A stretch of 64,000 nt of DNA from Actinomyces glycerinitolerans (GTDB taxonomy: Bacteria; Actinomycetota; Actinomycetes; Actinomycetales; Actinomycetaceae), in NCBI RefSeq assembly GCF_900098745.1, contig NZ_FQTT01000015.1, forward strand, positions 1-64,000, written 5' to 3'. Positions 14,726 to 62,543 of this stretch are shown here, in pieces. Below the pieces are notes generated by a model. It did not search any database. It worked only from the letters and a program-made list of their open reading frames with translations, and was not told the DNA's origin. Every line of letters begins with the position of its first letter. Positions within the stretch are counted from its first letter, which is position 1. Position numbers and translations under genes: made by a program.

Positions 14726-14838
14726 GTCTACTACGCCACTTCGGTGTTGGGTACGCCGGTTAGGTGTCCGTTGAAGGCCTGTCAGCCATTCAGCAGACCC
14801 CTAACCGGCGTTGTAGACGCTGAACCGGCGTAGCAGAC
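14726..14838. repeat. 113-bp palindromic element, copy 1 (diverged)
   Basis: It begins GTCTACTACGCC and ends GGCGTAGCAGAC, with inner arms GCCGGTTAGG and CCTAACCGGC around a variable centre. Its length is exactly 113 bp, as in the four other copies. It lies between convergent genes (lipoprotein and esterase). The interior has drifted from copies 3-5, but the paired arms changed together, which suggests the folded shape is what is kept. Confidence 0.85.
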
Positions 14839-14886
14839 GGCTTCGGAGTGTCGGAGAAACCGCGAGCTACGGCAGCGGGCCACGAC

Positions 14887-15849
14887 CTAGGTCAGGTGCT
14901 CCTTGAGGAAGGCGTCGACGACGTCGAGCACGCCGTCCTGCCAGAAGGGGGCGCCGCCGTGGTCGGCGCCGGCCAGCCGGTAGAAGGTGACGTCCTGGCC
15001 TTTGGCCTGCAGGTCCTGCACCAGCCAGACGGACTGGGAGAAGTTGACGATGCGGTCCTTGTCCCCATGGATCACCAGCAGCGGCGGCAGAGCGCGCCGC
15101 GAGGCATGCGGCACGTGATCCATGATGACGGTAGGGGCGACGAGTTCGGGATGCTCGTCCACCCGCACCCGGCCAATGAGCCAGCCCTCGGGAGAATCGG
15201 CCTCCAAATGGTCCTGAATGGACAGGTACTCGTTCATCCGCCCGATGTGGGTGGGGCCGTAGTAGTCAACGAAGGCCCTCAGGCCCAGCCCCTCGGTGAC
15301 GAGCTCGTCGGAGAAGGCGGGATCGTCGTCGGCGCCGCCCGTACCGGTGGCCCAGGTCATCAGGGTGGTGTGCCCGCCGGAGGAGTCGCCCCACATGGCC
15401 ATGCGATTGACGTCGACGTGGTACTCGGCGGCGTGTGCGCGCAGCCAGCGCACCGCCGTCTTGGCGTCCTTGGCCTGGGCGGGGAAGGGCGCGACCTCGC
15501 TGCCGCGGTACTCGACGATGGCGATCACGTACCCGCGGGCGGCGAAGGCCACCAGGTTGCCCAGTTCATGGCCGAGCTGCTGAGTGTGGAAGGCCGAGCC
15601 CTGCACATACAGGATGGTGGGGTAGAAGTCGGTCGCGGTGTCGGGGAAGGCGGCCCGACGCGGCGGCATGATGATCTGCAGGTGGAGCGTGCGGCCGGAC
15701 TTCTCGGCGTAGGGCACGTTCAGGTGGACCTCCCCGTAGCGGGGTTCGTCCACCGCGGGCAGCGTACGCATGCCGGGCACGGCCAGCTCGGAGGCGGGGA
15801 AGTCGGCGGGCTCGACGAGCCGGGGCGGGGTGAATAGGAAGTCGGTCAT
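14887..15849 (-). CDS. Alpha/beta-hydrolase, carboxylesterase-like
   Basis: A 320-residue cytoplasmic hydrolase without signal peptide. The nucleophile elbow is MWGDSSGGH (Ser about 170), an acidic residue follows in VIHGDKDRIVNF, and the histidine is in LAGADHGGAPF, giving the complete Ser-Asp-His triad. YPTILYVQGSAF is the strand and oxyanion region, with QGS in place of the HGG common in hormone-sensitive-lipase esterases. The overall order resembles BD-FAE/prolyl-oligopeptidase-type esterases. The ATG at 15849 is chosen since GGAG lies 7 nt before it. No neighbour hints at the substrate. Confidence 0.78.
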   Translation of the reverse strand: MTDFLFTPPRLVEPADFPASELAVPGMRTLPAVDEPRYGEVHLNVPYAEKSGRTLHLQIIMPPRRAAFPDTATDFYPTILYVQGSAFHTQQLGHELGNLVAFAARGYVIAIVEYRGSEVAPFPAQAKDAKTAVRWLRAHAAEYHVDVNRMAMWGDSSGGHTTLMTWATGTGGADDDPAFSDELVTEGLGLRAFVDYYGPTHIGRMNEYLSIQDHLEADSPEGWLIGRVRVDEHPELVAPTVIMDHVPHASRRALPPLLVIHGDKDRIVNFSQSVWLVQDLQAKGQDVTFYRLAGADHGGAPFWQDGVLDVVDAFLKEHLT

Positions 15850-16027
15850 GGCGTGCTCCATGTCAGTAGGACGGCGTCGGCCGCGGCACAAGCCATCATG
15901 CCTCCCCGGGGATGCCGCACACCATCGTTGCAGGAAGGACAGTGCTCGCCGCCTCGTGCCGTCGCGACCGGCTCAACACCGCACAACAACTGGTAAGTAC
16001 GTTCCAGCGCTTTTTATACGTACTGGC

Positions 16028-16050
16028 GTCATGAGCATGCTGAGCATGAC
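16028..16050. promoter_or_regulatory. Imperfect 23-bp palindrome upstream of the ATPase-DUF4276 pair
   Basis: GTCATG (16028-16033) and CATGAC (16045-16050) flank AGCATGC/TGAG, about 85 bp ahead of the ATPase start. It is preceded by TTTTTATACG, which could serve as a -10 region. It could be an operator or simply the 5' leader; no regulator gene sits in the pair. This is a weak call based on symmetry only. Confidence 0.3.
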
Positions 16051-16133
16051 AGACGTCCGACGTGCGCCGGAACGGTGGCACGTTCCCACTGCGGCCGCGA
16101 CGACGGGCAGTGGAGTCGCAGTAGAGTCTTGGC

Positions 16134-17324
16134 ATGGTCTCCATGGACGACGCCACCGCACCGCTCGGCGGACTGAGTGTGGAGGGCTACGCGTCGATCA
16201 GTAGAGTGAACTTGGAACTCACCAGCGCAGTCACCGTGCTCATCGGCGCCAACGGGGCGGGCAAGTCGAACCTCGTCAGCGCACTCGAGGTCATCTCCCG
16301 CGTTTGGGATAACACCTTCCAGGACTACCTGGTGCGCCACGGCGGCCTGCCGGCGCTGCTGCACACGGATGCGGCGGCATCATTCGATGAAGCCACCTTT
16401 GAAATACGCGGTCTGCCCGATGCGCAGAACCATTCCACCGGCTACCGCGTACGCCTGCGGGTGGACCGCAACAGCGAGGAGCAGGCCGCACTCGTCACCG
16501 AGGACTTCCTGTTCCACGACCGCACCAAGTACCCAGAGCCCTACAACGAGCACGTGTCATGGCGGGTGGCACGCAGTCGGGCCGCCTCCTTCCTCACCGC
16601 CGATGACCCTGAGGACGGCAAGCTGCAACGCTTCGCACGCTATGTGGCTCCGCTGGTCTCCGGGTGCCGGGTCTTTCACTTCGACGACGTCTCCCCCGAG
16701 GCACCGCCACGTTCCTTCTCCGAGGTTGGCGACGACATCGCCTTGCGCGCCAACGCCGAGAACATCGCCGCCTACCTGCTGCGCATTCGGGACGACCATC
16801 CGCAGCACTATCAGCGAATCGTGGCAACCATACGTCTGGCAGCACCGTTCTTCGAGGACTTCGTGCTCCAACCCAACCGAAACGACCAGCTACGCCTGCG
16901 CTGGCGTCAGCGGGGCCTGGACCGGGTGTTCCAGCCACGCTCCCTGAGCGACGGCACCCTGCGTTTCATCTGTCTGGCGACTCTGCTGCTCGGCCCGGAT
17001 CTGCCGGCGACGATCGTGCTCGATGAGCCGGAGTTGGGGCTGCACCCGGCAGCGATAGGCCTACTTGCCGAGATGGTGCACGCGGCCGCCGACGACGGAC
17101 ACCGAATCCTGTTGGCAACGCAGTCGGTGCCGTTGCTGTCACAGTTCTCCCTGGAAGAAGTAGCCGTGCTGAACCGGGTGGGCGGCAACACCACCATCAG
17201 CCGTCCGAATCCCGATGAACTCACCGGTTTCCTCGAGGAGTATTCGGTGGGCAGCCTGTGGGAGATGAACCTGCTGCGCGGACGCCCCGCACCCGAGACT
17301 CTGTCCGGGGAGGCGGAGCGATGA
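16134..17324 (+). CDS. OLD/RecF-like AAA ATPase, first gene of a two-gene module
   Basis: A 396-residue ABC/SMC-type ATPase. Walker A is GANGAGKSN (38-46), the signature-like LSDGTLRF is at 271-278, and Walker B is TIVLDEPELGLHP (293-305) with the catalytic Glu present. ILLATQSVPLL follows at about 325, where other members have a switch histidine. The middle 220 residues are helical and not recognisable. ATPases of this sort (AAA_15/AAA_21) pair with TOPRIM-like partners in OLD, PARIS and related anti-phage systems. The next gene overlaps its stop codon by 4 nt and encodes such a partner. The start is uncertain: ATG 16134 has no clear ribosome site and ATG 16143 is also possible. Confidence 0.85.
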   Translation: MVSMDDATAPLGGLSVEGYASISRVNLELTSAVTVLIGANGAGKSNLVSALEVISRVWDNTFQDYLVRHGGLPALLHTDAAASFDEATFEIRGLPDAQNHSTGYRVRLRVDRNSEEQAALVTEDFLFHDRTKYPEPYNEHVSWRVARSRAASFLTADDPEDGKLQRFARYVAPLVSGCRVFHFDDVSPEAPPRSFSEVGDDIALRANAENIAAYLLRIRDDHPQHYQRIVATIRLAAPFFEDFVLQPNRNDQLRLRWRQRGLDRVFQPRSLSDGTLRFICLATLLLGPDLPATIVLDEPELGLHPAAIGLLAEMVHAAADDGHRILLATQSVPLLSQFSLEEVAVLNRVGGNTTISRPNPDELTGFLEEYSVGSLWEMNLLRGRPAPETLSGEAER

Positions 17325-17983
17325 GTATCCGTTGGGTAGCGCTCCTAGTTGAAGGACAGACCGAAGAGGCCTTCGCTAATACAGTGTTGGCTCCAACCGC
17401 CGAGTCTCAGGGAGTGTCCCTGACCCCCATGGTTGTGAAAACCTCGGCCACGCCCACTGGCTCACATAAAGGAGGCGGTGGCTGGCAGGGATACGACCGC
17501 ATGCTTCGTAATCTGTTACGGCAACCGCATTGGCGCCGCGTGGGGTTGATGATCGACTACTACGGTTACCCACCGGGAGCCCCCGGACAGAATGGCCGCC
17601 GGTCTGACGCCAATGACCGCCACCAACTCACCGAGGCGCTCACTTCGCACTACGTCGATCCTGCTGCGGCCGATCGGTTCTGTCCGCTGATCATCAAGCA
17701 TGAGTTCGAGTCCCTGGTACTCGCAGCCATCGACGGCGGAGCAGGCGATGAGATCATTCCCAGCCAGGCGCTGCGTTCCCTCCGCGCCGCCATAAAGCTT
17801 GCGGGCACTCCGGAGGATGTGAACAACGGCGCGAGCACAAGCCCATCCAAGCGGCTCAAACGCGCATTCCCCCGCTACAGCAAAACCGTGGACGGCATAA
17901 CCCTGATCCAACAGGTTGGTCTGACGGCCATCCTTGAACGCTGCCCGGTCTTCTCCGCCTGGTGGCGGGAACTGCTCGCCTGA
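17321..17983 (+). CDS. DUF4276 family protein, TOPRIM-like partner of the ATPase
   Basis: A 220-residue protein whose ATG overlaps the ATPase stop (ATGA), so the two are co-translated. LLVEGQTEEAF (about 8-18) supplies the glutamate expected in the first TOPRIM motif, GLMIDYYGYP (about 74-83) supplies the acidic second motif, and KHEFESLVLA (about 128-137) a further Glu pair. DUF4276 proteins are commonly found beside AAA ATPases of the OLD kind, and a metal-dependent nuclease role has been proposed for such dyads. The pair is compact, has no third gene, and is flanked downstream by a 113-bp repeat. Known PARIS uses DUF4435 instead, so this would be a relative and not PARIS itself. Confidence 0.82.
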   Translation: MSIRWVALLVEGQTEEAFANTVLAPTAESQGVSLTPMVVKTSATPTGSHKGGGGWQGYDRMLRNLLRQPHWRRVGLMIDYYGYPPGAPGQNGRRSDANDRHQLTEALTSHYVDPAAADRFCPLIIKHEFESLVLAAIDGGAGDEIIPSQALRSLRAAIKLAGTPEDVNNGASTSPSKRLKRAFPRYSKTVDGITLIQQVGLTAILERCPVFSAWWRELLA

Positions 17984-17991
17984 GGCACCCC

Positions 17992-18104
17992 GTCCGCTTC
18001 GCCACTTCGGCGTTAACAACGCCAGTTAACCGTCTGCTGAAGGGCTCCGAGGTATACAGCAGACCGTTAAGTAGCGTTGTTAACGTCCAACCGGCGCAGC
18101 AGAC
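17992..18104. repeat. 113-bp palindromic element, copy 2
   Basis: It begins GTCCGCTTCGCC and ends GGCGCAGCAGAC, exactly 113 bp. The inner arms GTTAACAACGCC and GCGTTGTTAAC match copies 3-5 exactly, while the loop differs. It follows the DUF4276 stop by 8 bp. A broken right end (GAACGGGCGTAGCAGAC) appears once more near 18149-18165, so a second, truncated copy may lie in the same 220-bp gap. Confidence 0.85.
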
Positions 18105-18207
18105 ACCTCACCCCACCCCACCACCGCACCCGTAAACGCCAGAAGCCGGTGAACGGGCGTAGCAGACGAGTTCGGGACCACCAGCGGCGGCGGCATAAGC
18201 TCCGGGT

Positions 18208-19113: not shown

Positions 19114-19144
19114 GAGCGGCGCGGACCTTCGGGGCGGGGCCCCG

Positions 19145-19725: not shown

Positions 19726-19763
19726 AACCGGGCGCCTACCAAGGCATGGCTCACCGAACCGCG

Positions 19764-21830: not shown

Positions 21831-21903
21831 ACCTCTATGGTCCCCGATTCGACGCCCGAGCGGGAGCACTTTCGAGCCGCGATGCCGCCGCAGGTACGCG
21901 CAG

Positions 21904-22612: not shown

Positions 22613-22615
22613 AGT

Positions 22616-24308: not shown

Positions 24309-24374
24309 CGGCACTGGAGGGCGCCGGGCCGACCGGAACGCCGCGCACGCACGGAGGCACGCCCTCCTGCAATC

Positions 24375-24435
24375 CACGACCTTGGGGTACGTTCCACGAC
24401 CACCCCGGGGTCGTGCTGTGCACACCGAGGTCGTG
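24375..24435. repeat. Nested palindromic intergenic repeat, CACGACC family, copy 2
   Basis: It starts CACGACCTTGGGGT, then ACGTTCCACGACC, then the inverted CCGGGGTCGTG and GAGGTCGTG. The length is 61 bp, like copy 1's main unit. It lies between the convergent kinase and DUF4143 genes. The second half has drifted from perfect pairing. Confidence 0.75.
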
Positions 24436-24531
24436 CAGTGCGATGTGGCGTCCGCGAGTCGGCGCGTTGGGCGAGCCACGCCAACGGATCAAGCCCGCAC
24501 CACCTCGCCGTGAGCAGCAGCACCGACACCG

Positions 24532-25908: not shown

Positions 25909-25928
25909 GCCCCCAGCGTACGATAGGC

Positions 25929-48574: not shown

Positions 48575-48684
48575 AGTTGGGCGCGGAAGGGAAGAGGCAA
48601 TAGAAGGCAATAGGTCCGCCGAGGCGGCCTTGACGCTCACGCCGCAGGCAGCGACGACCCGCGCGCCACCCGCCTCGCACGCAA

Positions 48685-48744
48685 AACACGACCTTGGGGT
48701 ACGTTCCACGACCTCCCCGGGGTCGTGGATTAGCCCGAAGGTCG
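48685..48744. repeat. Nested palindromic intergenic repeat, CACGACC family, copy 3
   Basis: It opens with CACGACCTTGGGGT and ACGTTCCACGACC, identical to copy 2, then the inverted CCGGGGTCGTGG and AAGGTCGTGG. At 60 bp it lies between two minus-strand genes (GH42 start and serA end), so unlike copies 1 and 2 it is not in a convergent gap. Confidence 0.78.
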
Positions 48745-48790
48745 TGGCTTGCGCGTTGGCGCGGGCAGGATCGTGCGTCAGCGCCCAGGT

Positions 48791-51237: not shown

Positions 51238-51350
51238 GTCTACTACGCCGGTTCGGGGTTAACAACGCCAGTTAACCGTCTGCTGTATACCTCTGAGGCC
51301 TTCAGCAGAACGTTAAGTAGCGTTGTTAACGGGGAAGAGGCGTTGCAAAC
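51238..51350. repeat. 113-bp palindromic element, copy 3
   Basis: GTCTACTACGCC at the left and GGCGTTGCAAAC at the right enclose GTTAACAACGCC / GCGTTGTTAAC arms and CGTCTGCTG / CAGCAGAACG inner arms. It is nearly identical to copies 4 and 5. It lies in the divergent gap between serC and parD, 125 bp ahead of parD; the rest of this 368-bp gap shows no gene. Confidence 0.92.
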
Positions 51351-51474: not shown

Positions 51475-51747
51475 GTGAGCAGGACGCTGACCATCACCGT
51501 GCCGGACAGCCTGGCCGCTGAGCTGGATCAGCGTGTGGCATCAGGCGCGTACGCCAGCCGGAGTACAGCCGTCGTAGACGGGCTCCGCGAGTTGTTCAGT
51601 CGCGAAGAAGCTCTCGATTCATGGCTGCGCGACGAAGTGGGCCCGGCCTATGACGAGCTACGCGAGGATCCCACCCGCGCCTTGTCCCCCGAAACAGTGC
51701 GCGCACACATCGCCGGCATCCATGCCCAATCAGCGTCCGGAGCCTGA
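51475..51747 (+). CDS. ParD-like antitoxin
   Basis: A 90-residue ribbon-helix-helix protein: TLTITVPDSLAAELDQRVAS forms the strand and first helix, and YASRSTAVVDGLRELFSRE the second helix, the CopG/ParD pattern. The GTG start follows AAGGAGCCCCG. The C-terminal tail (from about 60) would wrap the toxin. The toxin gene overlaps its 3' end by 26 nt. Confidence 0.83.
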   Translation: MSRTLTITVPDSLAAELDQRVASGAYASRSTAVVDGLRELFSREEALDSWLRDEVGPAYDELREDPTRALSPETVRAHIAGIHAQSASGA

Positions 51748-52063
51748 AGCGCCGTCGCGCCACGTCGTCTACTCCCAGCGGGCGCAAGGCCACCTGGCTG
51801 ATCTGTATCGTTGGATCGCGGACGAGTCAGGATTCCCCAACCGGGCACTGCTATATGTAGCACTTATGGACCGATGCGAGGCTTTGGGCGACTTCCCGAT
51901 GCTGGGGCACGCTCGCGATGACATTAGGCCTGGCTTACGTACCGTCGGCTTTCGACGCCGAGCCGCCATCGCCTTCGCCGTGACCGATGAGGCTGTTGAG
52001 ATCCTCGGTGTCTACTACGGTGGCCGTGATCACGAAACACTTCTGCGCACCGATAAGCATTAA
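51722..52063 (+). CDS. ParE/RelE-family toxin
   Basis: A 113-residue toxin. VVYSQRAQGHLADLYRWIAD, RCEALGDFPMLGHARDDIRP, GLRTVGFRRRAAIAFAVTD and VEILGVYYGGRDHETLL match the ParE fold, including the closing GRD. ParE toxins poison DNA gyrase. The ATG at 51722 overlaps parD; no separate ribosome site is seen, which fits coupled translation. The pair is intact and lies beside the type ISP restriction gene, whose loss it could penalise. Confidence 0.82.
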   Translation: MPNQRPEPEAPSRHVVYSQRAQGHLADLYRWIADESGFPNRALLYVALMDRCEALGDFPMLGHARDDIRPGLRTVGFRRRAAIAFAVTDEAVEILGVYYGGRDHETLLRTDKH

Positions 52064-52108: not shown

Positions 52109-55100
52109 CTAGTCGCGCACGTCCAACGGGGGCAGGGACTTTACGATCTGCTGGGTGCGCACGGAGACGGTGGTGACGCGGGCGATGAGGTCGAGGAGGT
52201 AGCGGGGCTGGGGCCCCGCCATTTCGCCCTGGCCCGCGCCTTCGGCCATCCACTCGTTGGGGTCGTTGACGATGCCGGAGGCCTTGTCGGGCTTGACCTG
52301 GTAGCGGTCGATGATCCAGTCCAGGCCGCTGCGCGAGCCCAGCAGGTAGTCCTGCGTCGTCTCCGGGATGCCAGACACGGTCACGTGCTCGTTGTAGACA
52401 ATGCTGGTCTTGTCGGCGACCGGCTTTCCGTCCACCCGGGTCTTGGCGTAGCGCAGCTTGGTCACGTGCAGCAAAGCCGGGTCAATCGTGTCGCGCTCCG
52501 CCCATGGCACCTCCTTCCCGTCGACGGTCAGGGTCAGCTCGCATGGCTCCACGTTCTCGTAGTCCAGGTGAAGGTCCGCCAGCCCGCGCCCGGCGGTGGC
52601 GATGGCGACGAAGTCCGCGCGGGAGGCCACCAGCGGGATGCGCGGCAGGGACTTCTTCAGGTCCGCGCCGTAGCGGGCTCGGTAGTCGGGCGAGTGCAGC
52701 AGCCCGTAGACGTAGTAGAAGATGTCATCCTTGCCGACCGTCGGCCCGTAGGCCTCCCGGTAGGCACGCAGGGTGGCGTTGGTGATGTTGTCGACCCGGC
52801 GGTAGCCGCCAATCACCTCGCCCGCACTCTCACCATCCGGGCTCCCACCATCATTGCCGACGACGCCGCTCGCTCCCGCTCCCAGGTCGAGCATGCCCGC
52901 GTCCCGGGCGGGCTGGTCGACCGGCTCCCAGGTCCAACGCGGAAAGAACTGCCCATTACTCGAGCCCCAGAATGCCAGGTCTGGAACGCTCGTCATCGCC
53001 AGAGCCGAGAATGGCTTGTCAGATCCCTTACCAACTATGTAAAACCCCAGATTGTCGTGCGCCGGCGTGGGGAAGTAGCGGTGCAGCACCGCCGGGAGGT
53101 AGATGATCCCGTCGGAGGCGTTCAGCCACTGCTTGCAGAAGGGCCTGTAGAGGCCCGTGTAGGTGGCGTGCGCGTTGTAGCGAATAGCGCGGTCCTTTTC
53201 CGCAGACCGATATAGGTCACGAGTCCACTTGATCTGGGTCTCGTCCGTGGTGACCAGGTCCTTCGCCGCAACACCCGCGGCCAGCTCGGCGGCGTGGTCA
53301 CGGTGGACGCGCCCGCGCTCGGCGTCATAAGTACCGATGAGGCGCTGGCAGGATTCCCGCAGAGTCGCCGCGGAGAAGTTGTAGACCCATGCGTCGCGTC
53401 CGGTTTCTACTCCACGCGAGTAGGACTCGAAAACCGGTGCCTGCTCTTCGCCGATTGGCTGCCAGCTTCCGTAGCGCGGGTCGCGCTGGTTGATCCAGTC
53501 GCCGGCGGCGTTGGGGGTGATCGTCTCCCAGTCCATGGTCTCGATGCGCGAGTCGTCCACGATGCGCAGCTTGTCCTCGCGGCTCAGGTAGTCGCCGATG
53601 TCCCGGTAGTGCAGCACCGCCGGCCCGCTGTGAGCGGGGTCCTTCACCAAGAAGGTAATCGCGACGGTCGCGCGCGAGCCGCCTCCGAATACCTTCCCTC
53701 CCTCACGGCGCGAGAGCTCCCCGGCGGTGCGCTGATTGCCCCGCAGGTTGAACACGTAGACATGCGCGAACTCCTCCGCCAGGCTGAGCCGCACGCCGTC
53801 GGCGGTGTTGGCATCGATGAAGCCGCCATTGGTGACGAAGCCAATCACCCCGGCGTCCCCGAGCCGGTCACTGGCCCAGCGGATGGCCCGCAGGTAGGAG
53901 TCGTACAGGGAGTTCTTGTTGGTGCCCGTCGAGCGGGCCGCGTAGGTTTCGGCGATCCGCCGGTCCAGGTCCGGATAGCGCTGGTTGGCGTTGTTGTCGT
54001 TGGCGGACTCCTGCCCCACAGAGTACGGCGGGTTGGCGACGATCAGCCGGATATCCAGCTTGCGCTGGGCGGCGGCGCGGTCGTTGTTGGCCACGAAGAA
54101 GCTCGTGTCCAAGGTGCCCTCGCCCTCGCTCATCTGGAAGGTGTCGGCCAGCACGATCCCGTCGAAGGGCACATAGCCGCCGTCGTCCGCACCCTGCGCC
54201 CCGGCACCGGCGTCGTTTCCGGACTGCTGCGCCTGAGCGAGCAGGTCGCGGTAGGCGACCTCAATGTTCGCCGTCGCAATGTAGTAGGCCAGCAGCAGGA
54301 TCTCATTGGCGTGCAGCTCGCCGGCGTACTTGCGGGCCAGGTCGGCAGGGGCGATCAGCCCGGACTGCAGCAGGCGCACAATGAAGGTGCCGGTACCGGT
54401 GAAGGGGTCCAGCACGTGCACGCCCGCGTCGGTGACGCCCCGCCCGAAGTGCTCATGGGACAGGTGGTCCACGCTGCGCAGGATGAAGTCGACGATCTCC
54501 ACCGGCGTGTACACGATCCCGAGGGACTTCGCCGTCTTAGTGAAGGCCTGGGAGAAGAACTTCTCATACAGTTCGGTGATGATGCGCTGCTTGCCCTCGG
54601 CGTTGTCGATGCCGGCACAGCGCTCGCGCACCGAGGTGTAGAAGCCCTCCAGCGCCTCGGTCTCCGCCTCCAGGTTGGCGCCGTCGAGCACGCGCAGCAT
54701 CCGCCCCATAACCTGAGCCACCGGGTTGGTGGCGGAGAAGTCGTAGCCGTCGAATACGGCGTCGAACACCGGCTTGGTAACCAGGTGCTGGGAGAGCATG
54801 TCGATCGCGGAGGCCGGGGTGATCGAGTCGTTGAGGTTGGCCCGCAGGGCGTCGAGGAAGTGCGCGAACTCCGGGGCGACCGCCGGGTCCGCCACCCGCT
54901 GCTCCAGGCGGGTGCGGTGGCGGGCGGCGATCTGGGCGACGTCCTTGGCCCACTGCTCCCAGTAGCGGCGGCTGCCGACCTTCTGGACCAGGCGCGCGTA
55001 GATCGCCTCCTTCCACTTGCCCAGCGAAGCCAGGTCGAAGGCCGCCTGCTCACCCAGGTCAACCGCGTCGTCGTCGGGGTCGTAGGCGGACGGGCCGAAG

Positions 55101-57208
55101 GGATCGATGATGGCGACCTTGTCCGGCTTGGAGCGGTTGAGGTCGATCTTGTTGACCATGGCATCGAAGCGCTCGTCGTGCGCGCGCAGCGCCTGCAGCA
55201 CCTCCCACACCACGCGGAAGGTGTCATTGTCGGCCAGCACGTCCTCCGGAGCCATGCCCGTGGGAATGGCCACCGGCAGGATGATGTAGCCGTAGCGCTT
55301 GCCCGGAGCCAGCCGCATGACCCGCCCCACGGACTGCACAATGTCCACCTGGGACTTGCGCGGGGAGAGGAACATTACCGCGTCCAGGGCGGGCACGTCC
55401 ACGCCCTCGCTCAGGCAGCGGGCATTGGACAGCACCCGGCACGACACTGCCCCGTCGTCGCCGTCCTCGCTACTCCCGGCGCCCGACGACGACGCTCCCG
55501 GACCGTCCGCGCCCTCACCCGAGAGCCAACCCAGCAGGCGGTTGCGTTCCATGATGTTCATGGAGCCATCCACGTGCCTGACCTCGACCGACCCCAGCCG
55601 CCGCTGCGGCCCGGCACCATCGCCGCCCGCCGGAGCGACGGCGTCGTCCCCCTCGGGCAGGCCGGTGCGGTAGTCCTCGGCGACGTCGTTGAAGGACGCG
55701 GCGAAGCGCTTAGAGCTCCTGATGTCCCGGGCGAAGGCGACGGCGGTGCGCATGGGCTGAATGTCGGTGCCGTACTCGGACAGGTTCACGGAGCGCTTGG
55801 CCAGCGCGTTCCAGCAGCCGACGATGCGAGCCGCGTCATCCAGGGTGAGTTCGCCGTTGCGCGCAAGGGAGGACTGCATGCGGGAGGCGACGGCGTCCTC
55901 GGACACGGTCAGGACCAGCACCTTGTAGTCGGTGAGCAGGTTACGGGAGACCGCCTCGCCGAAGCCTAGGCGGAAGAGCTCCTCGCCGTAGGTGTCGGCG
56001 TCGTCCATGGATGCGAGCACCGCGTTCTTCTGGCCGGCGCGCGCCTTGGTGGAGTCGTCGTAGATGCGGGGAGTCGCCGTCATGTACAGGCGCTTGCGGC
56101 CGCGCAGGTAGGTGTTGTCGTGCACGCGGACGAAGGCGGACTCGTCCGCTCCGGCGAGCGTGGCGCCGGTGGTGCGATGGGCCTCGTCGCAGATGATCAG
56201 GTCGAAGTCCGGTGCTCCGAGCCCCTGTGCCCGGGCGACGGCGTCGATGGACTGGTAGGTGGAGAAGACCACCGTCATGGGGGTCACGCCGTCGACGGGA
56301 GCGGCGCGCCGGGTGAGCCTGCGGGCGAGGGCTTCGGCGTCGGTGGTGGCGGGGATCGCCAGGTCAACCACCGAGATGTCCTCGCTCAGGTCCGTCTTGC
56401 CGCGGCCCTTACCGACCTTGTTGTCAGAGCAGACCGCGAATGAGCGCAGCGGAACCTGGGCCTCTGCGCTCCACTCAAGCAGTGTCTGCGACAGCAGTGC
56501 AATGGAGGGGACCAGGAATAGCGCTACCCCCCCCCCGCCACTTCCAGCCATGGCCTCGGCAATGCGCAGCGAAGTGAAGGTCTTACCGGTGCCGCAGGCC
56601 ATGATGAGCTTACCGCGGTCGGCTGTCGCGAGCCCCTGGGTCACCGCATCCAGCGCACGCCGCTGGTGCTCGCGCAGCGTCTTACGCCCGGCACGCTCCA
56701 TGACCTCCGGAGTGGCCAGGTTGAACTTGTCCCAGTCGATGGTGGAGTTGAACAGGTCCTTCAGGCCGATGCGGGAGACCGGGATAGCCTGGTTCTCCAC
56801 CGTGGATGCGGCCGCGGAGTTCCACTTGTCGGTGGTGGACACGAACAGGCGCGAAGTGAACTCACCCGTGCCCGACTCGGCCAGGAAGGAGTCGACGTCG
56901 GCCTTGGTGACCTGGGACTCCGGGTCGTAGAACTTGCACTGCACCGCGCACAGCTCGCCGGTGTCACGCTCGCGAGCCACCAGGTCGACGCCGCGATCCG
57001 GGCGGGTGCCGCGATCCGGCCAGTCCCTCCACATCCAGACCTCGTCGAAGCGCTCGGCGTAACGGGGGTCGGTCAGGAGGAACTGCCGCACCAGGCGCTC
57101 GAAGCTCGTTCCCTTGCCCCGCTGCGTCTGAGCGTTGAAGTAAAGCTCATCGAGGAGGGCGCCGACGCGGGACTGGTTCTGGGGTGACTGGCTCACGCAG
57201 GGCAGCAT
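52109..57208 (-). CDS. Single-chain type ISP-like restriction-modification enzyme
   Basis: A 1699-residue protein holding a whole restriction-modification system. The order is: Mrr-like nuclease (GVDLVARE with Asp75, VQCKF with Gln90 and Lys92), SF2 helicase (Walker A ACGTGKT about 204-210, DEAH 341-344, QSVGRVMRLAPG), a helical coupler, an adenine methyltransferase (VLDPFTGTGTF and IVANPPYSVGQ) and a C-terminal target-recognition part. This matches the LlaGI/LlaBIII type ISP design. It methylates one strand of an asymmetric site and cuts where two translocating enzymes meet. ATG 57208 or GTG 57196 could be the start. Two Gly/Ser-rich inserts and a run of eight G in the coding strand (56527-56534) are notable. 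Confidence 0.87.
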   Translation of the reverse strand: MLPCVSQSPQNQSRVGALLDELYFNAQTQRGKGTSFERLVRQFLLTDPRYAERFDEVWMWRDWPDRGTRPDRGVDLVARERDTGELCAVQCKFYDPESQVTKADVDSFLAESGTGEFTSRLFVSTTDKWNSAAASTVENQAIPVSRIGLKDLFNSTIDWDKFNLATPEVMERAGRKTLREHQRRALDAVTQGLATADRGKLIMACGTGKTFTSLRIAEAMAGSGGGGVALFLVPSIALLSQTLLEWSAEAQVPLRSFAVCSDNKVGKGRGKTDLSEDISVVDLAIPATTDAEALARRLTRRAAPVDGVTPMTVVFSTYQSIDAVARAQGLGAPDFDLIICDEAHRTTGATLAGADESAFVRVHDNTYLRGRKRLYMTATPRIYDDSTKARAGQKNAVLASMDDADTYGEELFRLGFGEAVSRNLLTDYKVLVLTVSEDAVASRMQSSLARNGELTLDDAARIVGCWNALAKRSVNLSEYGTDIQPMRTAVAFARDIRSSKRFAASFNDVAEDYRTGLPEGDDAVAPAGGDGAGPQRRLGSVEVRHVDGSMNIMERNRLLGWLSGEGADGPGASSSGAGSSEDGDDGAVSCRVLSNARCLSEGVDVPALDAVMFLSPRKSQVDIVQSVGRVMRLAPGKRYGYIILPVAIPTGMAPEDVLADNDTFRVVWEVLQALRAHDERFDAMVNKIDLNRSKPDKVAIIDPFGPSAYDPDDDAVDLGEQAAFDLASLGKWKEAIYARLVQKVGSRRYWEQWAKDVAQIAARHRTRLEQRVADPAVAPEFAHFLDALRANLNDSITPASAIDMLSQHLVTKPVFDAVFDGYDFSATNPVAQVMGRMLRVLDGANLEAETEALEGFYTSVRERCAGIDNAEGKQRIITELYEKFFSQAFTKTAKSLGIVYTPVEIVDFILRSVDHLSHEHFGRGVTDAGVHVLDPFTGTGTFIVRLLQSGLIAPADLARKYAGELHANEILLLAYYIATANIEVAYRDLLAQAQQSGNDAGAGAQGADDGGYVPFDGIVLADTFQMSEGEGTLDTSFFVANNDRAAAQRKLDIRLIVANPPYSVGQESANDNNANQRYPDLDRRIAETYAARSTGTNKNSLYDSYLRAIRWASDRLGDAGVIGFVTNGGFIDANTADGVRLSLAEEFAHVYVFNLRGNQRTAGELSRREGGKVFGGGSRATVAITFLVKDPAHSGPAVLHYRDIGDYLSREDKLRIVDDSRIETMDWETITPNAAGDWINQRDPRYGSWQPIGEEQAPVFESYSRGVETGRDAWVYNFSAATLRESCQRLIGTYDAERGRVHRDHAAELAAGVAAKDLVTTDETQIKWTRDLYRSAEKDRAIRYNAHATYTGLYRPFCKQWLNASDGIIYLPAVLHRYFPTPAHDNLGFYIVGKGSDKPFSALAMTSVPDLAFWGSSNGQFFPRWTWEPVDQPARDAGMLDLGAGASGVVGNDGGSPDGESAGEVIGGYRRVDNITNATLRAYREAYGPTVGKDDIFYYVYGLLHSPDYRARYGADLKKSLPRIPLVASRADFVAIATAGRGLADLHLDYENVEPCELTLTVDGKEVPWAERDTIDPALLHVTKLRYAKTRVDGKPVADKTSIVYNEHVTVSGIPETTQDYLLGSRSGLDWIIDRYQVKPDKASGIVNDPNEWMAEGAGQGEMAGPQPRYLLDLIARVTTVSVRTQQIVKSLPPLDVRD

Positions 57209-57458
57209 AGGTGTGCCGACCCTCCGGCGGGCGCAATACCGAAATCTGGAATCAATCGCAACCGCCCTCGGGCCCGGGTGCCGCCGGGCACGATGCCCGA
57301 GGCGCACACCAGCGATCCCAGGCTCCGGGTGAACCGGCGCCGCCCACCGCCAAGCGCATGCCATGAGTTCACCCGCCCCCTTGCAGCCCGGGCTCCCGTC
57401 GCCTAGTCGTGCATGCGAGCGCGGCGATTCGTCTTTGCAGTGTTACCTCATCCAAGTC

Positions 57459-57512
57459 TTTACCGTGACACCGTCGCAGGTATGCTCGTCGGCGTGAACC
57501 ACGGCGGTTCAC
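57459..57512 (+). promoter_or_regulatory. Promoter and operator of the DUF726 gene
   Basis: TTTACC (57459) and TATGCT (57481) are spaced by 16 nt, a plausible -35/-10 pair. GTGAACC (57494-57500) and GGTTCAC (57506-57512) form an inverted repeat right after the -10, where a bound repressor would block initiation. The upstream 250 bp of this gap show nothing recognisable. Confidence 0.5.
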
Positions 57513-57539
57513 ATATGCCACGAGAGCACAGGAGACCCC

Positions 57540-59435
57540 ATGAGCTCATCCTCCGCGAAGGTTCGTTATACGCCTAAAGGCAGAGAGGGAGCCAAGGCGG
57601 TGCTTACTCTCACCAGCGGAGAGACTCTCACAGAGACTTGGCCCGGCGCAGACGGTACCCCCGAGTTCATTGGCGTAGACCGTCTGACCATGAACCCGGC
57701 GCTCACCGCCGCGCTGCACGCGTTCGTCGTCGCCAAGAAGGCGCAGCGTACTGCCGTTAATAATGTGGCACAGGCCGACGTGGAGAACGGAACAACCGCA
57801 ACCACGGACATGCACGCAGACCAGGCAGATTCAGTCGCCGATACTCCCACCGACGACGGCGCCGAGCCGGATGCCGCGGCCGATGCCACGGACAATTCCA
57901 CCTCTGCGGAGGAGGAAGCAGAGCGATTTGTCAGGATCAGCCGTCTATGGAGAAAGCAGCAGCCCGACCCGCTCGACGTCATTCAAGGGCGCTTGCGCGC
58001 ACAAACAGACGACGCGGAGAAACTACTCCTGAAGCTGGCGCAGATTCATGGATTCGGTGAGCGTGAGTCCACTCAGCACGATCGTAACGCCTGGTGTTCC
58101 GCGTGCCTGGCAAAAGGGGTCCACAGAGCACTCGACGTACCGGCAAACTGGTATGACGCATGGTGCTGTCGAAACTGTGGAGTGATCACCACCAGGTGCG
58201 CGATCCCCGGTTGCCCGAACATGGCGATACGCGGAATGGGCGTAACCGGCACCCGTGGCCTGTCACTGCCGGTTTGCGCAGAGCACTCCCACGAGGTCCC
58301 GGATTTTGAGACTAAGGACGCAACCATCGAGGATCTCGAACACTGGCCCGATCTGTTCGAGTACAAGCGCCGTAACGTCACCAGTCTCACCAAGCGAGGG
58401 GCGGTCGCCGCGGGGATAACCGTCCTGGCTGTTCCTGCGGCTTATTTCGCCGCACCGGCGATCGGCGGCATGGTAGGCGCAGCCGCCTCCATGGGCACAG
58501 GAACAGCACTGTCAGGTGCTGCCGCGTCAAGCTATGGCCTCGCACTACTCGGCGGAGGCTCAATAGCCACCGGAGGGCTCGGCATGGCCGGCGGAACCCT
58601 GGTTGTCTCCGCCGCGGGCGGCGCTGCGGGCAGCGCCTACGGTTTGCGGGTCGGCAGCGCATACCTCGGCGATGACTCCTCCTTCAACATCGAGTGCTTG
58701 CGTGATGGCGACGGACCCGCGGTTGTGTATTCTTCCGGCTTCCTCACCGACAATGACGACTCCTGGGCGAACTGGAAAAGGCTTATTGACACCGGCTATC
58801 CGAACAATGCCGTGTATCGGGTCCGCTGGGGTGCAAAGCAGAAGCGGGACATTGCGACCATTACCGGTGAGGGAGCCGGGCTTCGGCGCGGCATCACCAA
58901 GGTGGGCAAAGCGGGCCTCAGGGCGACCCGCTCGGCAGTCAAAAGACTTGGCCCTTTCCAGATGATAACTGGAGCCGCGGAAATGGCGCTCAATCCCTGG
59001 TCCGTGGCACTACGGAACTCCTCGGCGGCAGGCACAACTCTCGCAGCCATCCTCCGGCGCACCGAGAACAGGCAGGGGTTCGTGCTCATCGGGCACAGCC
59101 TTGGCGCAGCGGTAATGGCGACGGCAATGATCGGACTGGCCGCCGATAACGAGCTCTCTCCCGTGGTCACCGCCCACCTACTCGGCGCCGCATTCCCCGC
59201 AACCGCCGACTGCAACAAGCTTTCCGCAGGCGCCACCGGCAAGATCTATAACTACTTCTCCACCAATGACAAAGTCCTCGCGCACCTCTATCGCGCTGCC
59301 AAGCTAGGGGGCAAGGCGGCCGGGTCAACCGGTTTAATTGACCCCTGTGGAGGCGTGGTCAACGTAGACGTCAGCGATATCGTGAAGAAGCATTCTGACT
59401 ACATACACGAGGTGTCATTATGCGCGGACGCTTAA
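57540..59435 (+). CDS. DUF726-type alpha/beta-hydrolase with cysteine cluster and membrane segment
   Basis: A 631-residue protein of unknown role. It has a charged, low-complexity region (about 75-130); a cysteine-rich block (C186, C189, C209, C210, C213, C220, C225, C246) that looks zinc-binding; a Gly/Ala-rich hydrophobic stretch (about 287-365), probably membrane-inserting; and a hydrolase domain with VLIGHSLGAAV (Ser520), YFSTNDKVL (Asp577) and a late His (618 or 623), the DUF726 triad. CAGGAG precedes the ATG. Base use is less GC-rich than its neighbours. Between a type ISP enzyme and broken genes, a membrane-acting defence effector is possible but unproven. Confidence 0.72.
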   Translation: MSSSSAKVRYTPKGREGAKAVLTLTSGETLTETWPGADGTPEFIGVDRLTMNPALTAALHAFVVAKKAQRTAVNNVAQADVENGTTATTDMHADQADSVADTPTDDGAEPDAAADATDNSTSAEEEAERFVRISRLWRKQQPDPLDVIQGRLRAQTDDAEKLLLKLAQIHGFGERESTQHDRNAWCSACLAKGVHRALDVPANWYDAWCCRNCGVITTRCAIPGCPNMAIRGMGVTGTRGLSLPVCAEHSHEVPDFETKDATIEDLEHWPDLFEYKRRNVTSLTKRGAVAAGITVLAVPAAYFAAPAIGGMVGAAASMGTGTALSGAAASSYGLALLGGGSIATGGLGMAGGTLVVSAAGGAAGSAYGLRVGSAYLGDDSSFNIECLRDGDGPAVVYSSGFLTDNDDSWANWKRLIDTGYPNNAVYRVRWGAKQKRDIATITGEGAGLRRGITKVGKAGLRATRSAVKRLGPFQMITGAAEMALNPWSVALRNSSAAGTTLAAILRRTENRQGFVLIGHSLGAAVMATAMIGLAADNELSPVVTAHLLGAAFPATADCNKLSAGATGKIYNYFSTNDKVLAHLYRAAKLGGKAAGSTGLIDPCGGVVNVDVSDIVKKHSDYIHEVSLCADA

Positions 59436-59568
59436 TTAATGTGCGCCTGGACAGCGACCTGTATCTCACGAGTACTCCTTTACCGCAGATACCTTGTTCA
59501 CAGATCAGCGCCACACCCTGCCTGTAGTCGGCAATTGCCTGATCGACTGGGTGGTCAAGGCTAATTAA
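59420..59568 (+). pseudogene. Small frameshifted frame overlapping the DUF726 end
   Basis: From ATG 59420, MRGRLINVRLDSDLYL is read; one base appears to be missing at about 59466, after which HEYSFTADTLFTDQRHTLPV and GNCLIDWVVKAN continue to TAA at 59568. Joined, this makes about 49 residues with the look of a real protein. As it stands the frame ends early after 36 codons. The family is unknown; it overlaps the DUF726 stop by 16 nt, as coupled genes do. Confidence 0.4.
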
Positions 59569-60202
59569 TTATGTGGGACCGGAGGAACTGCTTCTTCCCG
59601 TAGAAGTTGATCTGATGGTCGCCCCACCAGGAGAGGAACTCCTCTGCGGTCTCACCGTTGTGCTCTAATTCGAAGGCACTATCGAAGGATGCAATAACGC
59701 CGTCGGTGGCCTCCGCGAGCGCCGCCGCGGCCAGGCCGTAACCGGTCGATGCAACGGCTGGCCCAGCGGCGTTGCGGTACTCGCTCCAGTAATGCCGACG
59801 TGCGTCGATCAGGTCAAGCGTCTCCGGGGCGAGCCGGTGGGCAAGCTCGGGAAGCAATCCCCAGCGTCCGATGAACGCGGGGTAGGCGAGGGCATCGGGA
59901 TCGTCATCATTGATGAGGTCGTCATCGTCGCGCACAAGGCACTCCGGCCACGAGTCGCTATCCCACACACCGTTGAGCCAGTATCCGAATCCAATCTCCA
60001 AACCCGGCGTCTAGCGCACGTCGGGCGGGACCATGCGCAGTTCCTCGCCCCGCTCCCGCGGGTAGAAGGCAGTCACGTCAAGGGTCGAGTCGATGCCGTG
60101 CCTGGCCAGGAGCTCGCGGAACAGCATCTCGGTTCGCGCCCGGGTCTGATGCACCAGCGGGAAGACGTCCGTCGTGGAGTAGACGTCGATCGTCGTTGAC
60201 AT
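59561..60202 (-). pseudogene. Gene of unknown function interrupted by one in-frame TAG
   Basis: From ATG 60202 the frame gives 63 residues (ending GEELRMVPPDVR), then TAG at 60011-60013, then continues in the same frame: TPGLEIGFGYWLNGVWDSDS and on to FLSWWGDHQINFYGKKQF, ending at 59561. The whole is 213 codons plus stop. Both halves read like one soluble acidic protein, rich in Trp and Asp (DDDDLINDDDPDALAYP). It could be a pseudogene, a sequencing error or, less likely, two coupled genes, the second starting at TTG 60001. No family is recognised. It converges with the preceding genes at TTAATTAATT. Confidence 0.55.
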
Positions 60203-60352
60203 GCAGAGAGCATACAAATGCCGACTGTATGAACCGTCGGCCCCAGGGCCGTCGCCCTCCGTCCTCCGAATCGCCGTACCCTGCGCGGACTCGGGGATCT
60301 GCAACAACTACAGTGAGCTACACCGCTGACCGCTATCCCTGGAGAAGTAGCC

Positions 60353-60565
60353 ATGGATTCTGCTCGCACCGGCTCCACCGACAGCCTGTACCTGAACTCC
60401 CCGCGCCACCTGCGCACACTCCTGGTCTGGGCATTGGTCACCGCCGTGTGCTTCAGCTTCCTGCCCGCAGCCGTGTGGAGCATCGTGCGCTGGATCCTGC
60501 TTGCCGGCCTATGCGTAGAAGTCATCCTGCTTGTTCGCGATCGCCGCGGGCGTCCCGGGCAGTAG
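60353..60565 (+). CDS. Small two-helix membrane protein
   Basis: A 70-residue protein with two hydrophobic segments, LLVWALVTAVCFSFLPAAVW (about 23-42) and IVRWILLAGLCVEVILLV (about 44-61), ending in basic RDRRGRPGQ. GGAGAAGTAGCC precedes the ATG, so it is probably translated. No family is recognised. It lies between the TAG-broken gene and a 113-bp repeat; no partner is evident. Confidence 0.6.
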   Translation: MDSARTGSTDSLYLNSPRHLRTLLVWALVTAVCFSFLPAAVWSIVRWILLAGLCVEVILLVRDRRGRPGQ

Positions 60566-60604
60566 CCTGCTGCTTCCACGCCCCGGCCTCCCTCGGTGTC
60601 TGAC

Positions 60605-60717
60605 ATCTACTACGCCGGTTCGGGGTTAACAACGCCAGTTAACCGTCTGCTGTATACCTCCGAGGCCTTCAGCAGAACGTTAAGTAGCGTTGTTAACGGG
60701 GAAGAGGCGTTGCAGAC
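60605..60717. repeat. 113-bp palindromic element, copy 4
   Basis: It begins ATCTACTACGCC and ends GGCGTTGCAGAC. Apart from the first base and a few positions it equals copies 3 and 5. It lies 40 bp after the small membrane protein gene, in an area of gene decay. Confidence 0.92.
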
Positions 60718-60838
60718 GAGAAGAGCGAATGCCCCTGTCAGCTCGTAGATCAGGTTGGTCGCCGACACCACCCACCCGGACGCTTCCTGCGCGTGCTCAA
60801 ACGCACCATGACGTGGTCCAAACGCGGAACCTCTACGG

Positions 60839-61129
60839 GTGCGGGCGAGCCTCGGCGCCTTCATTGCTACCGACCACCTCACCGCAAGCGCGTCCACGAC
60901 GCTTTACGCCACACTTACCTTCCCCGGCGGCCGGTGGGCCGCGGTCGAGGTGATATCGGGCACCTCCCAGATCGAGAAGGGCGCCCGTTCACTGGCCCGC
61001 ACCGTGCAGCAGATTGACACCTCCGCGGTCGGGGAGCCGGTACTCAAGCTTGTGGTCACCGGCACCGGCCCGACTGCGACCCTGCCGGACGGCACCGTGA
61101 CCTGCCCGCTAAGCGTCATCGGCCCCTGA
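60839..61129 (+). pseudogene. C-terminal remnant of a DUF4143-type ATPase
   Basis: The frame reads FPGGRWAAVEVISGTSQIEK, ARSLARTVQQIDTSAVGEPV and LVVTGTGPTATLPDGTVTCP, then ends LSVIGP. This is the nuclease-like tail (strand, ExK-like position, then the closing GP) of DUF4143 ATPases; the usual Lys after VEV is replaced by Ile, so even the tail is degraded. The ATPase domain is absent, and upstream (60720-60838) there is only a short unreadable stretch. No start with a ribosome site exists. Confidence 0.6.
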
Positions 61130-61196
61130 CGCAGAACCTCCCCGACACGCACCTTGGGCACCCGTCCGGGCAACCTTGTCCACCGCCCCGCGCCCC

Positions 61197-62228
61197 CTAC
61201 AGCCACAGGTCGCGGCGACGCCGTACCCCGCGCATGGCCTGCGGCGGGAACAGGCTCTCCAACCGCCGCACCAACCGCTCGGGATCGGCCAACTCCCGCC
61301 ACTCGAAGCGGTGCACCGCCCACCCGCCACGCCGCAGCACCATCTCCCGCTGCTTCTCCGCGCGCACGTCCGCCGACGTCGCCAGCTTGCCGTAGCCGTC
61401 GAACTCCAGGTCCACCATGGCACTGTCCACGGCGACGTCGAGGAAGTACTCGTGCGCATCGTCGCCGATCCAGCGCCGCTGCGTCACCGGTTCGGCCACC
61501 CCGGCAACACCGACCGCCCAGCGCAGCACGCTCTCGCCCGGCGACTCCGCGAAGGGATCCGCCAGCGCCACCGCCACCCTGGCACGACGCTTGCCGTGAC
61601 GGCGCCCCTGGCTCTCCACCATGCGCATCAACCGCTCGCGCGCCGCGTCGATCTCCATCTCCCCGTAGCAGCGTCGGTTGAAGCGGTCGGGACGGCACAC
61701 CGCCCGCAGCGCGGCGTCCACCACCGGCAACGACTCGCGCACCGGCAGGTCGAAGGCGCAGTCCATGGCGGTGCGCAGCGGCGTCGTCACCCGCAACCCG
61801 CCCACGTTGACGACCTCCTCCGGCGCCGGCGCGGTCGTCGAACGCAGCAGCGTCACCGACCGACCATGACGTCGGCCCTCCGGCGGCCCGTACCTGACCG
61901 TTGGGAAAACGATGGTGCTGCGCGATCGGTTCCCGGGCACCGCCAGGCGGATGCAGGGCTCGGACTCTAAGACAGGCAGTCCCAGCACCACCGCAGCCGC
62001 CTCGTGGGTCAGGGCGATTGCCGACGGCGAGGCTCGCAGCGCCGCCTCGCAGCGCGCCAGGGTGACGAGTTCCTTCAGGCGCCAGGTCGGCGTATCCCGG
62101 TCGGGAATGAACATGTAGCTGCCATGCGCCACCCGTATGAGATCGCGCCGACCGGCCAGGTCTCCGTTGGAGCGGTCGGCGGTGAACAACATGCGGGGGC
62201 GTTCGGGCGGCGTCGGGTAGCGCTGCAT
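61197..62228 (-). CDS. AbiEi-like/DUF559-type protein
   Basis: A 343-residue protein. The first part resembles AbiEi-like antitoxin or Rv-type hypothetical proteins: DLIRVAHGSYMFIPDRDTPT as a winged-helix wing, then ALTHEAAAVVLGLPVLES, then VTTPLRTAMDCAFDLPVRESL. The end carries a very-short-patch/DUF559-like endonuclease pattern: AMVDLEFDGYGKLA, EKQREMVLRRGGWAVHRFEW. Such two-part proteins are common in actinobacteria, often alone, with unknown function. The ATG at 62228 is the first that fits. No toxin-like AbiEii gene is adjacent. The next 200 bp upstream hold no gene. Confidence 0.72.
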   Translation of the reverse strand: MQRYPTPPERPRMLFTADRSNGDLAGRRDLIRVAHGSYMFIPDRDTPTWRLKELVTLARCEAALRASPSAIALTHEAAAVVLGLPVLESEPCIRLAVPGNRSRSTIVFPTVRYGPPEGRRHGRSVTLLRSTTAPAPEEVVNVGGLRVTTPLRTAMDCAFDLPVRESLPVVDAALRAVCRPDRFNRRCYGEMEIDAARERLMRMVESQGRRHGKRRARVAVALADPFAESPGESVLRWAVGVAGVAEPVTQRRWIGDDAHEYFLDVAVDSAMVDLEFDGYGKLATSADVRAEKQREMVLRRGGWAVHRFEWRELADPERLVRRLESLFPPQAMRGVRRRRDLWL

Positions 62229-62430
62229 GTCAGCAGAATCGCCGCGGCCCGACGGCGGCGCCACCGCGCCCCGCGATCTCTGTGGATTGGGGTGTCGCGA
62301 ACGCAGCCTGTGGACGCCGGTGAGAGGCCGGTGACGGAGGCGGCCCGGCGATGACCTGGTTCAGCGGCGCACGCGCACCACCGAAGGCCAGCTCCTTTGC
62401 GGATGCCGGCACCCGCCCACCCGCGGACGC

Positions 62431-62543
62431 GTCTACTACGCCGGTTCGGGGTTAACAACGCCAGTTAACCGTCTGCTGTATACCTCCGAGGCCTTCAGCA
62501 GAACGTTAAGTAGCGTTGTTAACGGGGAAGAGGCGTTGCAGAC
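62431..62543. repeat. 113-bp palindromic element, copy 5
   Basis: It begins GTCTACTACGCC and ends GGCGTTGCAGAC; nearly identical to copies 3 and 4. It lies between the AbiEi-like gene start and the CCA-enzyme gene end, both on the minus strand. Outside the element, the 398-bp gap shows nothing recognisable. Confidence 0.92.

What the first reader, a model, noticed from the sequence alone, without database searches (positions are those of the whole stretch)
14726..62543. Five palindromic elements of exactly 113 bp
Copies at 14726-14838, 17992-18104, 51238-51350, 60605-60717 and 62431-62543 all measure 113 bp, with GTCTACTACGCC-like left ends and GGCGTNGCAGAC-like right ends and nested arms inside. 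Copies 3-5 are nearly identical; copies 1 and 2 differ, yet their arms still pair. They occur in convergent, tandem and divergent gaps, so they are not simply terminators. A fixed length with changing sequence suggests a mobilised or structurally selected element, perhaps a MITE or REP-like sequence moved by an enzyme encoded elsewhere.
Basis: seen in the sequence. Interest (0 to 1): 0.72.

Follow-up and report, generated by a model that had tools for sequence, protein, structure and literature searches.

The report
Ladder palindromes riding ISL3-type transposons
Five 113-base near-mirror-image DNA repeats in this Actinomyces genome belong to a family of about 36 copies built in 20-base steps; about half of the family lies beside or between the ends of ISL3-type transposons, with matching 8-base target duplications at some, so an ISL3-type enzyme likely spread those, while copies without such ends, like four of the five here, were likely spread by a route not yet identified.

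Summary
In detail: five 113-bp nested palindromes at the stated places; the own genome has about 36 such sites. The 12-bp "end" is a rung that recurs about every 20 bp in each arm; rung number varies between copies and species.

In the canonical subfamily the palindrome is often the core of a 0.24-1.0 kb unit with ISL3-type terminal repeats (19 of 36 sites here have at least one end, 12 both). Over 31 units with both ends, from two genomes, flanking 8-mers agree (0.64 vs 0.38; nothing at 7 or 9 bp) and 8 duplications are perfect. ISL3 elements with such ends occur in relatives; this assembly has none. RAYT transposases: 0 of 49 genus genomes; integron integrases: 0 of 49 over cut-off.

Copies c1, c3, c4, c5 lack such ends. 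Two other species carry dozens of 111-bp relatives (0 of 29 loci with ISL3-type ends, no 8-bp duplication), so the palindrome looks older than its ride. At c2 the sequence reads as an ISL3-type unit landed inside an older palindrome.

Against a close species the core changes more slowly than its flanks (2.6% vs 6.8%; 14 of 16 sites), so it is probably retained. New variant of a known kind.

The parts
14726..14838 (.). copy c1: older-type ladder palindrome, no ISL3-type ends within 600 bp
   Evidence: present as a related palindrome in G012 and truncated in G051, absent in G058
17992..18104 (+). copy c2: canonical core; its outer left rung (GTCCGCTTCGCCACTTCGGC) follows CACCCC as in the older palindrome of G005
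18122..18147 (-). degenerate ISL3-type right terminal repeat of the unit that brought c2 (18 of 26 positions as in the consensus, by eye)
   Evidence: PWM score 5.3, just under the threshold of 6 used for counting; same sequence in G051, which also has a left end
18148..18167 (+). last 20-bp rung of the older palindrome into which the unit landed (GGTGAACGGGCGTAGCAGAC)
   Evidence: comparison with G012, G005 and G051
51238..51350 (+). copy c3: centre inverted relative to the arms; no ISL3-type ends
   Evidence: orthologues in G012, G051, G056
60605..60717 (+). copy c4, as c3
62431..62543 (+). copy c5, as c3
   Evidence: orthologue in G058 with 1 difference
16134..17983 (+). HEC-01A/HEC-01B-like candidate defence pair (ORFs 16134-17324 and 17258-17983) in a block (about 15927-17999) absent from G051, G056 and G058; its right breakpoint lies within the first rung of c2
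   Evidence: present in G005

Best explanation
The 113-bp elements are members of a dispersed family of nested palindromes built from 20-bp rungs; about half of the sites in this genome lie beside or between ISL3-type terminal repeats, with matching 8-bp target duplications at some, so those copies were likely spread as passengers of small transposons moved by an ISL3-family transposase, while copies without such ends, including c1, c3, c4 and c5, were likely dispersed earlier by a route not identified here. Shown: the ladder, the ISL3-type ends, the 8-bp duplications, ISL3 elements with such ends in relatives, and a 111-bp subfamily without such ends in other species. Read from comparison of four genomes: at c2 a unit with degenerate ISL3-type ends landed inside an older palindrome. 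Inferred: that an ISL3 transposase did the moving; that the outer transposon parts decay while the core is kept, likely because its hairpin or cruciform form in DNA or RNA is useful; that neighbouring copies are homogenised by gene conversion; and that rung number changes by unequal pairing of the 20-bp repeats. Untested: any molecular function of the core.
For: Ends in the right orientation within 900 bp at 19 of 36 G000 sites (12 with both) and 31 of 32 G051 loci (19 with both); wrong-orientation hits on 5 flanks in each set; 2000 random window positions: 85 with either end, 0 with both. In 31 units with both ends the flanking 8-mers agree at 0.64 against 0.38 for mismatched pairs, no signal at 4-7 or 9-11 bp, 8 perfect, 0 of 5000 permutations as high. 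Ten G051 units align over 0.67-0.88 kb with ends 94-96% alike and unrelated sequence just outside. ISL3 elements with such ends (26 of 26 and 22 of 26 nt in G058; 24 and 20 of 26 in G005), NF033550 transposases and perfect 8-bp duplications. Stand-alone 111-bp subfamily: 0 of 29 loci with such ends, sharp borders. c2 site in four genomes. Core slower than flanks: 47/1805 vs 532/7849, 14 of 16 pairs, Wilcoxon 1.5e-4.
Against: No ISL3 transposase in the window's own assembly, nor in G012 or G056. c2's own ends are degenerate and not among the 19 counted sites. The ISL3 elements contain no palindrome, so how it got in is unknown. No clean empty site was found. Against G051 only 2 of the 4 usable pairs have the slower core. 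Covariation within G000 is weak. Slower change could be gene conversion instead of selection.
Confidence: 0.7

Rival explanations
1. All copies descend from ISL3-type units whose outer parts decayed; the palindrome was never mobile by itself, and near-identical cores with unrelated flanks (c3-c5; L101 and L113 in G021) are made by gene conversion or local duplication.
For: Many G000 units have only one recognisable or degenerate end; most G000 sites whose flanks exist in relatives are filled there too; signs of homogenisation in G056.
Against: 0 of 29 loci with ISL3-type ends in G014, G021 and G016, although G014 and G021 have ISL3 transposase genes; in G012 and G005 a bare palindrome stands where later a unit landed.
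Confidence: 0.3
2. The palindromes are functional host sites (RNA hairpins, transcription borders or a protein-binding ladder) kept by selection; mobility is incidental.
For: Core slower than flanks; two-sided change in four of four G056 copies; 20-bp pitch, about two DNA turns; fixed mismatch positions.
Against: Missing from 35 of 49 genus genomes at the cut-off used; found in convergent, tandem and divergent gaps; no Rfam match in the window; weak covariation.
Confidence: 0.25
3. REP/REPIN-like elements moved by a RAYT or other Y1 transposase.
For: Palindromic, dispersed, of even length.
Against: PF01797: 0 of 49 genus genomes, while the control rings in 5 of 14 known genomes.
Confidence: 0.03
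4. Integron-like attC recombination sites that bracket gene cassettes.
For: Palindromes of fixed length with changing sequence; a gene block with a breakpoint at an element.
Against: Integron integrase TIGR02249: 0 of 49 genomes over the cut-off; weak matches occur in all 49 and in all 14 controls, as other tyrosine recombinases give. Copies are scattered over many contigs.
Confidence: 0.02

Closest known systems
MITEs of the ISL3 insertion-sequence family
   Same: Terminal repeats like those of full ISL3 elements in relatives, 8-bp target duplications, no PF01610 match inside the G051 units (match positions), several copies per genome.
   Different: The conserved part is an internal 20-bp-rung palindrome that also exists without the terminal repeats.
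BrickBuilt MITE of Porphyromonas gingivalis (PMC4596501; abstract and part 1 of section 7 read)
   Same: A MITE with short tandem repeats (23 nt) inside, about 19 copies, intergenic, ends like those of resident IS elements.
   Different: Its repeats are direct and one-sided and its IS family is IS5; here two opposed stacks of 20-bp rungs form a palindrome, with ISL3-type ends.
REP/REPIN elements and RAYTs; CGTC-tagged REPs (PMC3733652; abstract and passages read)
   Same: Dispersed palindromes; CGTC-tagged REPs too lack a dedicated transposase, and the authors suggest that other transposases may move them.
   Different: REPs there are 20-40 bp; no Y1 transposase in this genus. 'Actinobacteria' and 'Actinomyces' do not occur in that text.
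ERIC/IRU elements (recalled; passages of PMC10969869 and search listing of PMC2759123 seen)
   Same: Palindrome of roughly 100-130 bp, intergenic, tens to hundreds of copies.
   Different: No 20-bp ladder known to me; different hosts; sequence not compared here.

Membership tests
MITE of the ISL3 family (palindrome-bearing units) | terminal inverted repeats like those of an ISL3 element | tested here: met
   both ends at 12 of 36 G000 sites and 19 of 32 G051 loci; ISL3 elements with such ends
MITE of the ISL3 family (palindrome-bearing units) | 8-bp target duplication | tested here: met
   (31 units, 8 perfect); ISL3-like transposon with 8-bp repeats in PMC8615141 (passages)
MITE of the ISL3 family (palindrome-bearing units) | no transposase of its own | tested here: met
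   PF01610: none in G000; none of the 9 G051 matches lies in the palindrome loci fetched
MITE of the ISL3 family (bare copies c1, c3, c4, c5) | terminal inverted repeats | tested here: not met
MITE of the ISL3 family (bare copies and 111-bp subfamily) | 8-bp target duplication | tested here: not met
   0.40 against 0.36 for 31 copies, none perfect
MITE of the ISL3 family (c2) | terminal inverted repeats on both sides | tested here: inconclusive
   degenerate right end in the window (score 5.3), left end only in the G051 and G058 alleles
REP/REPIN with RAYT | Y1 tyrosine transposase in the genome | tested here: not met
   PF01797 0 of 49
Integron attC site | integron integrase | tested here: not met
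   TIGR02249 0 of 49 over cut-off
Known structured RNA | Rfam match | tested here: not met
   0 matches at gathering scores in the window
ERIC-like element | sequence or structural kinship with ERIC | not tested
   likeness recalled only

The most novel reading that the evidence does not exclude
Ladder palindromes are a class of selfish DNA of their own: two opposed stacks of 20-bp rungs (two helical turns each) that spread alone by an unidentified enzyme without target duplication, and that board ISL3 transposons as passengers when these insert into them. A second, sequence-unrelated family in the same window (CACGACCTTGGGGT) has the same 20-bp ladder, so the pitch itself, not the sequence, may be what an enzyme or binding protein reads.
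Probability: 0.22. Interest if true: 0.75.

Novelty: new variant of a known kind. Interest (0 to 1): 0.52.

Why it matters
It is a case of a palindromic repeat family with no RAYT in its genus that appears to use an unrelated DDE transposase family as its vehicle, an idea voiced for REPs without a dedicated transposase (PMC3733652). The searches made here listed no paper on such an element in Actinomyces; the one paper holding both Actinomyces and MITE terms (PMC3672468) was not opened. If the core outlives its carrier by selection, it is a testable example of a transposon part kept by its host, and the 20-bp rung gives a countable unit of growth and loss.

Tried and rejected
Autonomous parent with GTCTRCTACGCC ends: in the part of the 12-mer list that was shown, the inverted pair at C11:19618 and 23642 is a match inside an ORF plus a small hairpin, with a GroEL-like ORF between them (by eye); the exact matches on C5 lie in coding-looking sequence. 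Rejected.

RAYT/IS200 mobiliser: 0 of 49. Integron: 0 of 49 over cut-off. Plasmid and phage collections: no match to copy 2; viral contigs: no match to one exact core pattern. Rfam: none in the window.

Clean empty site: sought at c1, at the G012-only copy, at ten G000 sites and at C10:30095. Where both flanks were found the site was mostly filled; elsewhere flanks were missing or rearranged (for instance both flanks of C7:698895 and the left flank of C19:111605 gave no clear match). c1 is absent in G058, but the gene end beside it differs too. The G051-only copy at 3546040 could not be placed, because the window does not align across it.

Possible element around the single G009 copy: two end-like matches 1,459 bp apart, no transposase-like ORF by eye, right end weak; dropped.

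Other duplication lengths at bare copies: the largest excess was 0.14 at 5 bp with offset 1 and 1 perfect match of 31; no consistent length, taken as composition or shared flank.

Rows left out: the five G051 copies matching the window region (c2-c5 and 3546040) were not in the 32 G051 loci. The C11:664 fragment was left out of the 36. Of the 30 loci around G014/G021/G016 copies, L234 (minus-strand duplicate of L104) was not used; L238 and L246 are off-centre because the copy lies at a contig end, so they count in the 29 scanned but not in the 27 aligned. Three of seven G051 pairs with flank divergence of 25% or more were left out of the pooled figure. The G014/G021 loci are those fetched, not all copies. 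Rung-length figures use the outermost rung-like matches in a 240-base stretch; three values (148, 156, 159) may join neighbouring matches. Pair table was replaced, which aligns differently (the extra 20 bp of the C7:153290 pair falls in the flank there).
Full report
1. Check. The eight strands folded are far more stable than shuffles. The own genome (3,695,248 bases, 19 contigs) holds 37 places by blast with copies 4 and 1, 36 after dropping one fragment; a covariance model built on 23 gap-free copies gives 72 hits there, both strands counted.

2. Anatomy. Each arm is a stack of 20-bp rungs, near GTCTRCWACGCC plus 8 bp; the canonical copy has two full rungs per arm and a 33-bp centre, which gives 113 bp. 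Rungs recur outside many copies (C3:183720 one more, C4:107622 two more). Lag 20 is the best lag in four of five arms tested (identity 0.47-0.62) and lag 19 in the fifth, from G021, where lag 20 is not above shuffles. At the c2 site G051 has one outer rung where G058 has two; one G014 copy has rungs in tandem on one side (L249). Of 27 measured G014/G021/G016 copies, 19 are 109-114 bp, two 91-93, three 130-131 and three 148-159. Mostly unpaired positions recur at 7, 13-14, 17, 20, 32, 34, 40-41, 49 and 51, and in c3-c5 the central 33 bp is inverted relative to the arms (by eye).

3. The vehicle. Flanks of many canonical copies are repeated too. Ten G051 copies align over 0.67-0.88 kb with sharp ends: GGCTCTTCCGGTTTGAGGGTGTGGTG at the left and its inverse at the right, 94-96% alike, while the sequence just outside is unrelated (32-36% identity). 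Ends in the right orientation within 900 bp occur at 19 of 36 G000 sites (12 with both) and at 31 of 32 G051 loci (19 with both); wrong-orientation ends occur on 5 flanks in each set; 2000 random window positions give 85 with either end and 0 with both. In the 31 units with both ends (244-1019 bp) the flanking 8-mers agree at 0.64 against 0.38 for mismatched pairs, other lengths show nothing, 8 are perfect, and none of 5000 permutations reaches the total. ISL3 elements of 1,448 bp with such ends, an NF033550 transposase gene and perfect 8-bp duplications occur in G058 and G005. PF01610 rings in 32 of 49 genus genomes but not in G000, G012 or G056. That an ISL3 enzyme moved the units is inferred from ends and duplications, not observed.

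4. The passenger looks older. G014, G021 and G016 hold a 111-bp relative, with 77, 71 and 2 hits, both strands counted. In 27 oriented copies conservation is 0.82-0.91 within the palindrome and falls to about 0.5 within some 20 bp of its ends; 0 of 29 loci have an ISL3-type end, and no 8-bp duplication shows. Window copies c1 and c3-c5 likewise have no such ends. The c2 site suggests the order of events: in G012 and G005 an older palindrome stands directly before GAGTTCG; in G051 and in the window a degenerate ISL3-type right end is followed by the last 20-bp rung of such an older palindrome and the same GAGTTCG. In the window the left part of the unit is gone and a block with a HEC-01-like gene pair abuts the outer rung; G051, G056 and G058 lack that block, G005 has it beside a bare palindrome. 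So one gene-content breakpoint falls in a palindrome; whether the palindrome caused it is open.

5. Constraint and homogenisation. In 16 orthologous pairs with A. succiniciruminis (G058) the core differs at 47 of 1805 sites and 250-bp flanks at 532 of 7849 (2.6% against 6.8%); the core is slower in 14 of 16 (Wilcoxon 1.5e-4). With G051 four of seven pairs were usable: 6 of 427 against 152 of 1990, slower in two of four. For c3-c5, G056 copies differ among themselves by 1-8 and from G000 by 8-14, and all four share a two-sided T42-A72 to C-G change; G000 copies differ by 1-3, but G051 copies are equally close to them (0-5), and G012 is hardly homogenised (within 5-10, to G000 7-9). Pair counts on the 23 G000 copies give only weak covariation. 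Selection for the hairpin and gene conversion both remain possible.

6. Comparison. The palindrome-bearing units with both ends meet the tested marks of ISL3-family MITEs; the bare palindromes do not and are not filed there; c2 is inconclusive. REP/REPIN-RAYT and integron sites fail on the missing enzymes. The nearest described architecture found is BrickBuilt, a MITE with 23-nt tandem repeats (PMC4596501, abstract and part of section 7). CGTC-tagged REPs without a dedicated transposase (PMC3733652, abstract and passages) pose the same question of who moves them; here one likely answer is a ride on ISL3-type units.

7. Distribution. 14 of 49 genus genomes match the model at E 1e-4: nine with 26-77 hits (both strands; 77 candidates per genome were scored, so high counts are lower bounds) and five with 2. 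No match to copy 2 in plasmids or phages and none to the exact pattern in viral contigs.

8. Limits. No clean empty site, no experiment, and no enzyme for the bare palindromes. Most relatives are unnamed. Whether copies outside the window are intergenic was not tested.

Noticed in passing
window 9253-9342, 24369-24441, 48681-48750: A second, sequence-unrelated nested palindrome family (CACGACCTTGGGGT) with the same 20-bp step in its arms: motif starts at + 9259, 9279 and - 9306, 9326; + 24375 and - 24402, 24422 (lag 20 best in three of three stretches). Dispersed hits in G056 and G012.
   Followed up: partly
L047 (C14:301942), L040 (C19:319850), L062 (C3:125836 and 126883): CRISPR-like arrays (37-bp repeat GTCTTAATGCACC..., period about 73 bp) lie close to palindromes at three places of the genome.
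   Followed up: no
window 51650-52063 (+) and 52109-57364 (-): ParE-type toxin gene and a 1751-aa type ISP/IIG restriction-modification gene between palindromes c3 and c4.
   Followed up: no
L037, left flank of C7:588693: A piece with repeated CGAACCGTC matches many places in relatives, so another dispersed repeat family exists; its spacing is not a clear 20-bp ladder.
   Followed up: partly
L207 1351-2739 (G058:C80): The one ISL3 transposase gene matched in A. succiniciruminis departs from the family near its C-terminus (profile 4-344 of 370), so it may be inactive.
   Followed up: no
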